A DNA stretch of 41,788 bases, taken from an uncultured Burkholderiales bacterium. Lineage in GTDB: Bacteria > Pseudomonadota > Gammaproteobacteria > Burkholderiales > Burkholderiaceae_C. Each line of letters opens with the position of its first letter. Positions within the stretch are counted from its first letter, which is position 1. This document shows, piece by piece, positions 8,275 through 27,623 of this stretch. The position numbers and the translations under genes are program-made. The notes below the pieces were generated by a model. That model made no database searches, was not told where the DNA came from, and was given only the letters and a program-made list of their open reading frames with translations. The stretch lies in contig CAJCDH010000085.1 of the NCBI GenBank assembly GCA_903961095.1, positions 1 to 41,788 on the forward strand. The letters run 5' to 3'.

Positions 8275-8373
8275 CTCGACGGGCCTTCCCGCATGGTAAA
8301 GCGGCCAACCGAGTCAGGTGGGGAACCAAGCAGCTCTAACTGCAGAGCCAGTGCCGGGGTCAAGGCTCGTCAC
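8275..8373 (+). ncRNA. ffs: Small (4.5S-type) signal recognition particle RNA
   Basis: Core gtcaggtggggaaccaagcagc...gagccagtgccggggtcaaggctcgtc matches the bacterial SRP RNA apical core (GUCAGGnnnGGAAnnnAGCAGC). 5' gacgggcctt (8278-8287) pairs with 3' aaggctcgtc (8362-8371) with one G-U. Divergent from dnaX. Ends are estimates. Confidence 0.9.
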
Positions 8374-9700
8374 CTTTCATTTCAGCATGCAAAGACTGTG
8401 CAGCCTTATAGCCGGTGGCCATGCAGGCTGTCATCAAATAGCCACCCGTTGGCGCCTCCCAATCCAACATTTCTCCGGCGCAATAGACGCCTGGCAAAGC
8501 TTTGGTTTGAAGCCCCGAGTCCAGACCCTCCCAAGCTACCCCACCCGCAGTGCTAATGGCTTCATCAATAGGTCTGGGGGCCGTGAGTCTGATGCTCAGG
8601 CCTTTGATGGCCAAGGCCAGTTGCGCCGAGTTTTGCAAGCTCGCATGGGATAAAAGTTCGTTCAAAAGAGCCATCTTCACACCCTCAATGCCTAAACGGC
8701 CCTTTAAATGCGATGACAAACTGCGCGAAGCTCTGGGGTGCGAAACGGCTTGAGTCACTTTCTCCAAAGTCCAGTCTGGCAGTAAATCTAATTTAAGTTC
8801 AGCAAATCCTTGTGCTTGAATGCTTTTGCGCAAATCAGCAGAAGCTGCATAGATCAAACTTCCCTCAACGCCGTAGGCGCTGGCAACAAACTCGCCCTGC
8901 CGCCTTGCATTCTGCCCATTCGGTCGTGACCAATCGATAGCGACCGATTTCAAGGGAAAGCCTGCAAAACGAGACGAAAAAAAGTCTGTCCATCCAAGAC
9001 CATCGCGACCAGCCACATGAAAGCCACAATTTGAGGGACTGAGCGCATGAACGGGTATGCCCCTTGCCTTGAGCCATGGCACCCAAGCGCCGTCAGATCC
9101 AAGGCGAGACCAGCTGCCGCCCCCCAGAGCCAAAACAACAGCACTTGCTGAAAATGAGCGCGACTCAATTTTGTCCGATGAAAGTTGGCGAACTTCAAAA
9201 TCCAATTCGATGTGGGGCTGTTCCGAATGGGGGCTAGAACGAGCCTGCAAGCCGTTCAAACGGTGGCGCATGTGAAATTCAACGGGCTTGCCCATCAATG
9301 GATGCCGCAAACGCTGTAACCAAGCCCTTAGCAATGGGGCGGCCTTCATTTCTTGCGGAAAAACCCGACCCGAGGTACCAATAAAAGTTTCAACTCCCAA
9401 CTCCTTCGCCCATGAACGCAACTGGTCTGCACCCCACTCACTCAAGATTGGTTTTAAATGGGTCTCTTGTTCATCGTATCGTTGCACAAAACTTTCAAAA
9501 GCCTCTGAATGAGTGAGGTTGAGACCACCACGTCCAGCCAATAAGAACTTTCTCCCCACCGATGGCATGGCATCAAAAAGGTGCACCGAATACCCAAGAC
9601 CCGACAAGACTTGGGCCGCCATGAGTCCTGCAGGGCCGCCGCCAACAACCGCCACTGACTTACTCCGTGGCTTTGAAGACTGAAGGGAAATGTTGCTCAT
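8360..9700 (-). CDS. NAD(P)/FAD-dependent oxidoreductase, BaiN/HI0933-like flavoprotein
   Basis: [53 protein letters not shown]...[14 protein letters not shown]...[31 protein letters not shown]. Confidence 0.88.
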
Positions 9701-23032: not shown

Positions 23033-23051
23033 ATTTTCACTCTTGTTTGGG

Positions 23052-23057
23052 TATAAT
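23052..23057 (+). promoter_or_regulatory. Candidate -10 element (TATAAT) for rpoD
   Basis: gggTATAATcc about 20 nt after the dnaG stop; implies a leader of about 240 nt before rpoD. The -35 element is unclear. Confidence 0.5.
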
Positions 23058-23301
23058 CCACTTTTCAGGCAAGAGCGACAGCAGCACCTCCGGACCCGGC
23101 CAACGCCACAGCGCACCTCCCTCCATGGGACGGCCAATATATCCGCAAGGACTGCACTCCAAATGTTCGCCCACATATCTTGCCTATAAGTCCTTGCAAA
23201 TGAAGTCACCTGCCCCCAGGTGTTTGTTTGCATTTCCTCTAGCGCCAGAAGTTTGTGGCGCAGCGTTTGTTTCCATTCAGTTTGAAGTATTGAGGTCCAT
23301 C

Positions 23302-26061
23302 ATGCCCGCTCAAAAGCCGAAGAAGCCCGTTAAAGCACAAGCCACGTCTGGCGCCAAAAAACCTGTCAAACCCGTTGCAAAGCCAGTCGCTAAGTCGACC
23401 AGCAAATCAGTGGCTAAACCGGCCCCTAAACAGGCCTCAAAACCAGCCCCTAAAGTAACGGCCAAAACAAGTCCGGTCAAAGCCAAAGCGCCAGTCAAAG
23501 CACCGGTCAAAGCACCTGTCAAAGCGAATGCCAAAACCACTGCAAAACCAGTGGTCAAAGCTGCCGCTAAGCCAGTTGCTAAGCCCGTTGCCAAACCTGC
23601 AGCCAAAGCAACAACACCGGCCAAGAAAGCCATTTCAGTGCCCGTATCCAAAAAAACAGTCGCCGTGAAGGCCCCCACTAAAACGCCCGTCAAGGCAGCA
23701 AAACCTGAAGCCCCCAAGGAGAAGTCCAAAGTTGTGGCTAAAACAGCGGTAAAAACAGAGGTAAAAGCAGTCACAAAAGCTGCCGAAAAACCTGCAGTGA
23801 AACTTGCTGAAAAGCCAGTTGCAAAGCCAGTTACAAAACCGGTCGCTACTGAAGTTGCCAAAGTAAGCGATAAAAAGGCAACGAAGCCTGAAGAAAAAAC
23901 TTCTTCCAAAAACAAAACAGATACTTCGGCTGGCACCAAAGCCCCAGCCGTCAAGCCAAGCAAAACAAGCACCCCAGACGAAGATACCAAGTCAAGCGGT
24001 GTCAAGCGCGGCCGTAAACCTAAGGCAGAAGCTGAAGCCATTCACGAAGACTTAAGTGACATCGAAGAGGATTTGGTTGGAGAACCAGTTGCAGAATCCA
24101 CAGAGAAAGTTAAACCACTTCGCATGAAGATCAGCAAGGCCAAAGAGCGCGCCTTGATGAAAGAGTTTGGCCTAGACGAAACTGTTTTGTCTGAAGAAGA
24201 CATGGCCAAACGCCGTCAGCGCCTCAAGGCATTGATCAAATTGGGCAAGACGCGTGGTTACCTCACACACGGCGAAATTTCTGACCACTTGCCCGACAAG
24301 TTGGTGGACGCCGAAACTCTCGAGGTGGTGATCGCCACTTTGAACGATTTGGGCGTGGCTGTTTACGAGCAAACACCCGATGCAGAAACTCTGATCATTA
24401 CCGACAACGCACCCACAGGCTCCACCGAGGAGGAAGCTGAGGAAGCAGCTGAAGCAGCGCTTTCTACCGTGGACAGTGAGTTTGGCCGCACAACCGATCC
24501 AGTTCGCATGTACATGCGCGAAATGGGCACTGTTGAATTGCTCACCCGTGAAGGCGAAATTGAAATTGCCAAGCGGATTGAAGGCGGCTTGATGGACATG
24601 ATGACGGCCATCAGCGCATCACCCGCCACCATTTCTGAAATTCTCCGCCTAGCAGGCGAGATTCGCGATGGCAAAGTGGTTATTTCTACTGTGGTCGATG
24701 GTTTCTCCAACATCAACGAAGCCGACGACTATGTGGCCGAAGAAGACTTCGATGAATTTGACGAGTCAGACGATGACGATGGCAAAGGTGGCTCTAAAGC
24801 GCTGACCAAGAAATTGGAAGAATTGAAGAATCAAGCTTTAGAACGTTTTGATCGCATTACAGAGCTCTTTGAAAAAGTTCACACAATTTCTGCCAAAGAG
24901 GGTTGGGGCACACCCGCCTACATCATTGCGCAGAAGGAATTGTCAGAAGAGTTGATGACCATCCGATTTACGGCCAAGACCATTGAAAAGCTTTGCGATA
25001 TGGTGCGTGGACACGTAGACGATGTCCGCAAAAAAGAACGCGAACTGCGTCGCATCATTGTGGACAAATGTGGTTATCCGCAAGATCAGTTTATTCTTGA
25101 ATTCTCAGGACGTAACAAAAACAACCAGCGAATTCCCTCTCACTTACTCGATTTGCAGTGGATTGAAAAACAAGCTGCTGCAGGCAAACCTTGGAGTTCG
25201 GTCATGGGCCGAAACATTCCACCGGTTCAAGATTTGCAGCAAAAACTCACCGACTTGCAAACCCGCGTTGTGGTGCCTTTGGATGAACTCAAAGACATCA
25301 ACAAGCGCATGAATGCAGGTGAACGTTCTTCGCGTCATGCCAAGAAGGAAATGATCGAGGCCAACTTGCGCTTGGTCATTTCAATTGCCAAAAAATACAC
25401 CAACCGTGGCTTGCAGTTTCTCGACTTGATTCAAGAAGGCAACATCGGCTTGATGAAGGCCGTTGATAAGTTCGAATATCGCCGTGGTTATAAGTTTTCA
25501 ACTTACGCCACATGGTGGATTCGCCAAGCCATCACGCGTTCAATTGCCGATCAGGCTCGCACCATCCGTATTCCGGTTCACATGATTGAGACCATCAACA
25601 AGATGAACCGTATTTCTCGCCAGCACTTGCAGGAGTTTGGCTTTGAGCCCGATGCCAGCATCTTGGCCGAAAAGATGGAAATCCCTGAAGACAAGATTCG
25701 CAAGATCATGAAGATTGCCAAAGAGCCTATCTCCATGGAAACGCCAATTGGTGACGACGACGACAGCCACTTGGGCGACTTCATCGAAGACAGCGCCAAC
25801 ACAGCGCCTATCGATGCAGCCATGCAAGCTGGTTTGCGCGATGTGGTGAAGGACATCCTAGACAGCCTGACACCCCGTGAAGCCAAGGTGCTGCGCATGC
25901 GCTTTGGCATCGAGATGTCAACCGACCACACCCTTGAAGAAGTGGGCAAACAATTTGACGTCACACGCGAGCGCATTCGTCAAATTGAAGCCAAAGCACT
26001 GCGCAAACTCAAGCATCCAAGCCGCAGCGACAAGCTACGCAGTTTCATCGATACGATGTAA
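23302..26061 (+). CDS. rpoD: RNA polymerase sigma-70 factor RpoD with long Lys/Ala/Pro/Val-rich N-terminal extension
   Basis: Canonical regions: [12 protein letters not shown]...[80 protein letters not shown]...[55 protein letters not shown]-terminus [32 protein letters not shown]... Confidence 0.96.
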
Positions 26062-26621: not shown

Positions 26622-27329
26622 TTAAATTGATTGCGTGTCAGTTGTTTGCGTCCCTTGACGTTTGGTTGTCCACCAGCCTAAGCCCAATACACCGACAATC
26701 GCAAGTATGTAAGTTGCAGCACGGGCTAAGTTGTTGATCATTTCACCGCCATCAAAAATGGGGTCTAGAAGTTTTTCATTGATGACCATCTGAGCAGCAG
26801 TGAAGGCCAAGACTGCAGCGCCCAAGTGAATGATCACTGGCCATTTTTCGACCAAGCGCAAAACCAATTTGCTGCCCAGCACCACAATTGGAATGCTGAT
26901 GAGCAAGCCAATGACAACCAGCGTAAAGTCGCCATTGGCAGCACCGGCTACGCCCAATACGTTGTCGACACCCATCAGTGCGTCGGCCACAATAATGGTT
27001 TTCATGGCACCCCAGAAAGTGGTGGCACCGCCGCCTTCGTGTTCGTCCTCTGAGGTATCGGCTATGAGCTTGTAAGCAATCCATAAAAGGCCAAGGCCAC
27101 CAATCAACATCAGGCCTGGAATTTTAAGAAGCCATACAACGCCGACGGTCATGGCAGAGCGAACGACGATGGCACCCACAGTGCCCCAAATAATGGCTTT
27201 TTGTTGATGTTCTGGAGGGAGGTTGCGCGCAGCAAGCGCAATGACAATGGCGTTGTCGCCAGCTAAAACTAAATCTATAAGAATGATGGCGAGCAAAGCT
27301 GACCACCATGGCACTGAAAACAATTCCAT
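26622..27329 (-). CDS. TerC family integral membrane protein (YjbE-like, probable metal/Mn-related transporter)
   Basis: MELFSVPWWSALLAIILIDLVLAGDNAIVIALAARNLPPEHQQKAIIWGTVGAIVVRSAMTVGVVWLLKIPGLMLIGGLGLLWIAYKLI; TerC signature LAGDNA. Confidence 0.92.
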   Translation of the reverse strand: MELFSVPWWSALLAIILIDLVLAGDNAIVIALAARNLPPEHQQKAIIWGTVGAIVVRSAMTVGVVWLLKIPGLMLIGGLGLLWIAYKLIADTSEDEHEGGGATTFWGAMKTIIVADALMGVDNVLGVAGAANGDFTLVVIGLLISIPIVVLGSKLVLRLVEKWPVIIHLGAAVLAFTAAQMVINEKLLDPIFDGGEMINNLARAATYILAIVGVLGLGWWTTKRQGTQTTDTQSI

Positions 27330-27390
27330 GAAAGACCTTCAATAACGATCCGAACAAGCTGCCGTGTCAAATGACCACGGCAACACGAGA

Positions 27391-27535
27391 GATCGAAGGT
27401 CTTGCTTTGCTTGTTATATATCAGTTATGTGCCCAACAAACCGGAAGTCATAAACTCCGTAATGACGATTTGTTGATCTCTTCGTGCGCCTAATGGCTGA
27501 ACTGAGCACGAAGAAATTGAGCTACTCCCCATCGA
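27391..27535 (-). promoter_or_regulatory. yybP-ykoY-type manganese riboswitch upstream of terC
   Basis: Minus-strand RNA contains GGGGAGUAGC (27530-27521), UUCGUGC...GCACGAAG helix, AUCAACAAAUC...GGUUUGUUGGGC, and terminal GCAAGACCUUCGAUC (ending 27391), matching remembered yybP-ykoY landmarks; sits before a TerC gene, a classic host. Boundaries estimated. Confidence 0.82.
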
Positions 27536-27623
27536 TGTGGGGATTAGAATTCATGTCAGCTCAATATCGAATTCAAGCTCTGTTTAGGCCTAGATTTTGT
27601 AGGGGATTTGGCTGCATATTGGC

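What the first reader, a model, noticed from the sequence alone, without database searches (positions are those of the whole stretch)
27327..27403. Mn riboswitch whose 3' aptamer strand can directly pair with the terC Shine-Dalgarno
In the minus-strand RNA the conserved CAAGACCUUCGAUC ending the aptamer has a perfect 9-nt complement, GAAGGUCUU (27340-27332), which contains the probable SD GAAGG six nt before the AUG (27329). A further GAUC/GAUC pairing (27394-27391 with 27350-27347) and an internal hairpin UGCCGUG...CACGGCA would sit inside. The same UUCGAU is needed for the aptamer's closing helix with AUCGA(U) at about 27536-27531. Hence SD sequestration and aptamer closure are mutually exclusive: a visible translational ON switch.
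Basis: partly seen in the sequence, partly recalled or inferred. Interest (0 to 1): 0.6.

Follow-up and report, generated by a model that had tools for sequence, protein, structure and literature searches.

The report
Manganese riboswitch gripping terC's Shine-Dalgarno
Upstream of a probable manganese-exporter gene in the freshwater bacterium Limnohabitans, the strand that closes a manganese-sensing RNA can instead pair directly with the gene's ribosome-binding site; this is a real, conserved, lineage-specific wiring of a known riboswitch class, and its response to manganese is predicted but untested.

Summary
On the minus strand, a yybP-ykoY (RF00080) aptamer (27536-27391) precedes a TerC/YjbE-family gene (26622-27329). 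Its 3' strand AAGACCUUC (27403-27395) is perfectly complementary to GAAGGUCUU (27340-27332), which contains the SD. None of 428 genes sampled from a sister genome matches this complement or duplex stability. In 23 close relatives the two strands are 100% and 96% conserved, while the spacer between them is 71% conserved and keeps a hairpin with compensatory changes in 8 of 9 pairs. The closing helix P1 and the SD helix share one strand, so they exclude each other; without ligand the predicted fold has the SD paired. This platform occurs in 33 terC leaders of Limnohabitans and near relatives, all with a mismatched P1; 45 other comamonad terC leaders mostly have an unbroken P1 core and another platform. 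An SD complement of this length was not seen in about 110 other RF00080 loci. A conserved promoter places the transcript start at the first base of P1. Best reading: a translational Mn2+-ON switch working like the add adenine riboswitch. Mn2+ binding and expression could not be tested. New variant of a known kind, moderate interest.

The parts
27566..27571 (-). Probable -35 element, TTCGAT in the window (TTGGCA in many relatives), 17 nt before the -10
   Evidence: Leader comparison; weak in the window, not found by the consensus scan
27543..27548 (-). Probable -10 element TCTAAT; implies transcript start at about 27536, the first base of P1
   Evidence: TCTAAT at this spacing in all 23 core leaders
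27391..27536 (-). yybP-ykoY (RF00080) Mn2+ riboswitch aptamer
   Evidence: RF00080 36.1 bits, E 2.9e-8; invariant L1/L3 strings and covarying P2
27529..27536 (-). P1 5' strand AUCGAUGG, partner 1 of the switch strand (one U.U mismatch)
27523..27530 (-). Conserved L1 string GGGGAGUA
   Evidence: invariant in the alignment
27476..27517 (-). P2 hairpin (AUUUCUUCGUGC / GCACGAAGAGAU)
   Evidence: six pairs with compensatory changes
27434..27475 (-). P3 with the L3 metal-site string UCGUCAUUACG (27468-27458)
   Evidence: the same string is in E. coli alx
27391..27403 (-). Switch strand AAGACCUUCGAUC: 3' strand of P1 or anti-SD
   Evidence: 100% conserved in 23 relatives
27358..27384 (-). Spacer hairpin GUUGCCGUG / CACGGCAGC
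   Evidence: 8 of 9 pairs with compensatory changes
27347..27350 (-). GAUC, pairs with 27394-27391 in the OFF form
   Evidence: invariant
27332..27340 (-). GAAGGUCUU, contains the SD GAAGG, partner 2 of the switch strand
26622..27329 (-). TerC-family (YjbE subfamily) gene, probable Mn2+ exporter
   Evidence: Pfam PF03741 E 6e-47; NCBIfam TIGR03717 218 bits over a cut-off of 134.8

Best explanation
A translational Mn2+-ON riboswitch with direct capture of the SD. Shown in sequence: the aptamer's last strand, AAGACCUUCGAUC, has two exclusive partners, the 5' strand of P1 or the SD region GAUC...GAAGGUCUU, and a conserved promoter places the transcript start at the first base of P1. Inferred: when Mn2+ is low, the weak, mismatched P1 opens as the SD is transcribed, the 9+4-bp SD helix forms over a spacer hairpin, and terC is not translated. 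When Mn2+ is high, metal binding at L1/L3 stabilises P1 before the SD emerges, the SD stays free and the exporter is made.
For: Perfect 9-nt complement beyond anything in 428 control genes; its conservation in 23 relatives across a fast-changing spacer hairpin with compensatory pairs; unliganded folds pair the SD with the aptamer strand in all 23 core leaders, partly in L039; in partial transcripts P1 is favoured (0.89) when its 3' strand has just emerged and is replaced by the SD helix (0.94) once the SD is made; no intrinsic terminator at the SD hairpin; TIGR03717 R_switched_YjbE gene. Published: Mn2+ stabilises the weak P1.1 against strand invasion (PMC6754395); E. coli mntP is a translational Mn-ON switch of this class (PMC11647493).
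Against: No Mn2+ binding or expression data. The SD helix does not covary. Forcing P1 costs 12.7 kcal/mol without ligand, so equilibrium switching is unlikely and timing during transcription must be invoked. In partial transcripts P1 is transiently lost between its completion and the SD. RF00080 is below the gathering score.
Confidence: 0.8

Rival explanations
1. The same two folds exist, but the main output is transcription: the untranslated OFF leader is cut short by Rho, and SD masking is the trigger rather than the end point.
For: In E. coli mntP, Rho terminates in the riboswitch region and Mn2+ restores coupling (PMC11647493); the B. pertussis Mn riboswitch transcript stops within the riboswitch region without Mn (PMC8546581).
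Against: No intrinsic terminator at the SD hairpin; conservation is centred on the SD itself. It does not exclude Rho acting downstream of SD masking.
Confidence: 0.12
2. The leader senses pH or transcription pausing rather than Mn2+ as such, as first proposed for E. coli alx.
For: The L3 string UCGUCAUUACG is identical in E. coli alx, whose leader was described as pH- and pausing-dependent (PMC3874183); the large energy gap implies kinetic control.
Against: The Mn-aptamer core is intact, and in E. coli mntP alkaline pH is reported to act by favouring tight Mn binding (PMC11647493).
Confidence: 0.05
3. The SD complement is a by-product: SDs are purine-rich and the invariant aptamer string ACCUU happens to match AAGG, so the pairing has no regulatory role.
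For: CCUU in the aptamer is complementary to any AAGG-type SD; the SD helix does not covary.
Against: The match runs past the SD core into GUCUU and GAUC, both conserved; 0 of 428 control genes, SD-bearing ones included, reach it; type B leaders with nearly the same aptamer strand lack it.
Confidence: 0.03

Closest known systems
yybP-ykoY Mn2+ riboswitch (Rfam RF00080), translational members E. coli mntP and alx
   Same: Aptamer strings and helices; placed before a Mn exporter / TerC-family gene; mntP is reported as SD masked without Mn and free with Mn (PMC11647493).
   Different: In mntP and alx the AGACC strand has only short or split matches at the SD, and in alx it folds into an adjacent hairpin. 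Here it is a perfect 9-bp antisense of the SD, and P1 is mismatched.
Transcriptional Mn2+ riboswitches (e.g. Xanthomonas oryzae)
   Same: A weak P1.1 stabilised by Mn2+ competes with strand invasion by a downstream segment (PMC6754395).
   Different: There the invader builds a terminator; here it is the SD region, with no terminator.
add adenine riboswitch of Vibrio vulnificus
   Same: Works like it: a translational ON switch with the SD sequestered until ligand binding (PMC3874183); that P1's 3' side is the anti-SD strand there is from general knowledge.
   Different: Unrelated aptamer and ligand; add is described as thermodynamically driven, while here a gap of about 12 kcal/mol suggests kinetic control.
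Mn2+ riboswitches of mneA (UPF0016) genes in Burkholderiales, including one in the window's own genome (L007)
   Same: Same aptamer class and strand AAGACC; GGCC beside the SD can pair with UGGC just before AAGAC.
   Different: The SD core itself pairs with the aptamer strand only 12% on average, against 75% in the terC leaders described here.

Membership tests
yybP-ykoY Mn2+ riboswitch (RF00080) | Significant match of sequence and structure to the covariance model | tested here: met
   36.1 bits, E 2.9e-8 over 551 nt, full model length
yybP-ykoY Mn2+ riboswitch (RF00080) | Rfam's automatic-inclusion score of 45 bits (a curation threshold, not a biological feature) | tested here: not met
   36.1 bits. 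Not used to exclude membership: the validated E. coli mntP element scores 41.6 and alx has no match at E 0.01
yybP-ykoY Mn2+ riboswitch (RF00080) | L1 GGGGAGUA, L3 CGUCA with adenosine metal site, closing GCAAGACC, four-way arrangement P1-P2-P3 | tested here: met
   Strings invariant in relatives; P2 and P3 paired 93-99% with compensatory changes in P2; P4 not resolved
yybP-ykoY Mn2+ riboswitch (RF00080) | Location in the 5' leader of a Mn homeostasis gene | tested here: met
   TerC family PF03741, TIGR03717 R_switched_YjbE
yybP-ykoY Mn2+ riboswitch (RF00080) | Mn2+ binding with submillimolar affinity | not testable with these tools
   Needs in-line probing or SHAPE
Translational ON riboswitch with direct SD capture | Switch strand shared between aptamer closure and SD helix, mutually exclusive | tested here: met
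Translational ON riboswitch with direct SD capture | Absence of an intrinsic terminator in the platform | tested here: met
Translational ON riboswitch with direct SD capture | Ligand-dependent translation initiation | not testable with these tools
   Needs a translational fusion or toeprinting

The most novel reading that the evidence does not exclude
Lineage-specific rewiring: Limnohabitans and close kin moved the Mn riboswitch of terC to direct capture of the SD, using an SD region that resembles the aptamer's own 5' P1 strand (AUCGUU in both), and weakened P1 with U.U mismatches to balance the new competitor. This would be a traceable case of an expression platform being exchanged on a fixed aptamer, with tuning of the switch helix.
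Probability: 0.5. Interest if true: 0.5.

Novelty: new variant of a known kind. Interest (0 to 1): 0.38.

Why it matters
Mn2+ riboswitches are widespread. Here is a simple translational platform in which one 13-nt strand has two exclusive partners, conserved across dozens of species with natural variants in both helices. It makes the balance between P1 strength and SD capture directly testable. It also shows that Rfam's gathering score leaves the sampled comamonad terC Mn riboswitches unannotated.

Tried and rejected
1) Intrinsic terminator at the SD hairpin: none found. 2) A 5' hairpin CCCC...GGGG seen by folding upstream of P1: rejected as part of the mRNA because the conserved -10 box places the transcript start after CCCC, and relatives lack CCCC. 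3) RF00080 gathering search as a test: uninformative for this subfamily. 4) Claiming that capture by the aptamer strand is unique among Mn riboswitches: softened after finding that mneA leaders can pair GGCC next to the SD with UGGC before AAGAC. 5) Covariation proof of the SD helix: not available, both strands are nearly invariant. 7) The primary papers on mntP/alx as Mn switches that were looked up are not held. 8) Order-wide survey limits: start codons were assigned automatically and several are wrong, and sampling was through RF00080, which misses weak members.

Full report
Observation. The minus strand between 27571 and 27327 was read directly. AAGACCUUC (27403-27395) and GAAGGUCUU (27340-27332) are perfect complements; in the whole window the 9-mer occurs only at these two facing places. 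GAAGG stands six nt before AUG 27329, which opens a 235-aa TerC/YjbE-family protein. The 96-nt platform folds into exactly this pairing with z = -3.9.

Aptamer identity. RF00080 matches over its full length at 36.1 bits, E 2.9e-8, under the gathering score of 45, so the default scan is silent. As a control, the experimentally established E. coli mntP element scores 41.6 and alx gives no match at E 0.01. Twelve type A relatives score 30.8-42 bits, so the low score reflects the model. The diagnostic strings GGGGAGUA, CGUCA in L3 and GCAAGACC are invariant in the close relatives, and P2 has six pairs with compensatory changes.

Is the SD complement more than chance? Against 428 genes from 400 kb of a sister genome (G006), the duplex of AAGACCUUCGAUC with the last 25 leader bases averages -4.6 kcal/mol, minimum -11.6, longest perfect complement 8; the window has -15.6 and 9. 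In 23 close relatives the aptamer strand is 100% conserved and the SD region 96%, while the spacer is 71% but keeps a hairpin by changes on both sides in 8 of 9 pairs. The SD helix is paired in 97-100% of cells but barely varies, so it is supported by conservation, not covariation.

Two platforms on one gene. The leaders of about 85 terC homologues fall into two main kinds, with a few lacking the switch. Type A (33 leaders, window included): P1 5' strand mostly AUCG[UA]UGG with one or two U.U mismatches, SD region with GAUCG and mostly GAAGGUCUU or a close variant; median duplex -15.6. Type B (45 measured): mostly an unbroken CGAAGG/CCUUCG P1 core, a hairpin straight after the aptamer, the aptamer usually ending 100-135 nt before the start codon; median -6.0. 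On a TerC protein tree 32 of 33 type A sequences fall in one weakly supported clade of 38, and 27 of them in a clade supported at 97. In type A the conserved UU of the switch strand is unpaired or half-paired in P1 but pairs with AA of the SD; in the two leaders where it has become AU (L044, L092), the full SD match is lost.

Wider survey. RF00080 searches of 250 genomes of the order and 184 of the class, with 114 loci analysed, found an 8-nt or longer SD complement only in Limnohabitans terC; automatic start-codon assignment makes this approximate. Many of the others precede mneA (UPF0016), where GGCC beside the SD can pair with UGGC just before AAGAC, but the SD core is on the aptamer strand only 12% on average against 75% in type A. 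In E. coli mntP and alx the strand has only short or split matches at the SD.

Mechanism. A conserved TCTAAT six nt before P1 in all 23 core leaders places the transcript start at the first base of P1. In partial transcripts of the window, the outer P1 pairs are favoured once their 3' strand is out (0.89); alternatives come and go; when the SD appears the fold flips to the SD helix (0.94, P1 0.00). Forcing P1 costs 12.7 kcal/mol without ligand, so the ligand probably acts while the RNA is being made. This agrees with published work showing that Mn2+ stabilises a weak P1.1 against strand invasion (PMC6754395) and that mntP is a translational Mn-ON switch (PMC11647493). Mn2+ binding, translation control and kinetics are inferred here, not shown.

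Verdict. The finding is real and correctly read. It is a member of the Mn2+ riboswitch class with a direct SD-capture platform that appears confined to terC of Limnohabitans and near kin in this sampling; it works like the add adenine riboswitch. Moderate interest.

Noticed in passing
L007 923-1674 (G000:C104), minus strand: A second Mn riboswitch in the window's own genome (77.9 bits) precedes an mneA/UPF0016-type gene and has a different expression platform.
   Followed up: partly
L003, L155-L168 and other mneA leaders: Many Burkholderiales mneA leaders have a GGCC motif directly before the SD that can pair with UGGC just before AAGAC of the aptamer, over a long hairpin: a second recurrent platform.
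   Followed up: partly
L023-L102 terC leaders: No sampled comamonad terC Mn riboswitch reaches Rfam's gathering score, and sampled type B leaders do not match RF00080 even at E 0.01 although their motifs are intact; the class is under-annotated here.
   Followed up: partly
L094, L098, L100, L068, L076: Some terC relatives (e.g. Rhodoferax lacus) lack the GGGGAGUA/AAGACC leader altogether, suggesting loss of the switch.
   Followed up: no
window 27330-27307: The start codon can form CAUGG...CCAUG with the first codons of terC, seen in the minimum-energy fold.
   Followed up: no
window 8278-8374 (+): Bacterial small SRP RNA, 58.8 bits.
   Followed up: no
window 23047-26061 (+): A 1004-aa frame that looks like the primary sigma factor RpoD with a long Ala/Lys/Pro-rich N-terminal part; not tested by profile.
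   Followed up: no
L032, L060: Metagenome bins titled Singulisphaera and Bordetella parapertussis carry Limnohabitans-like terC and leaders; the record names look wrong.
   Followed up: no
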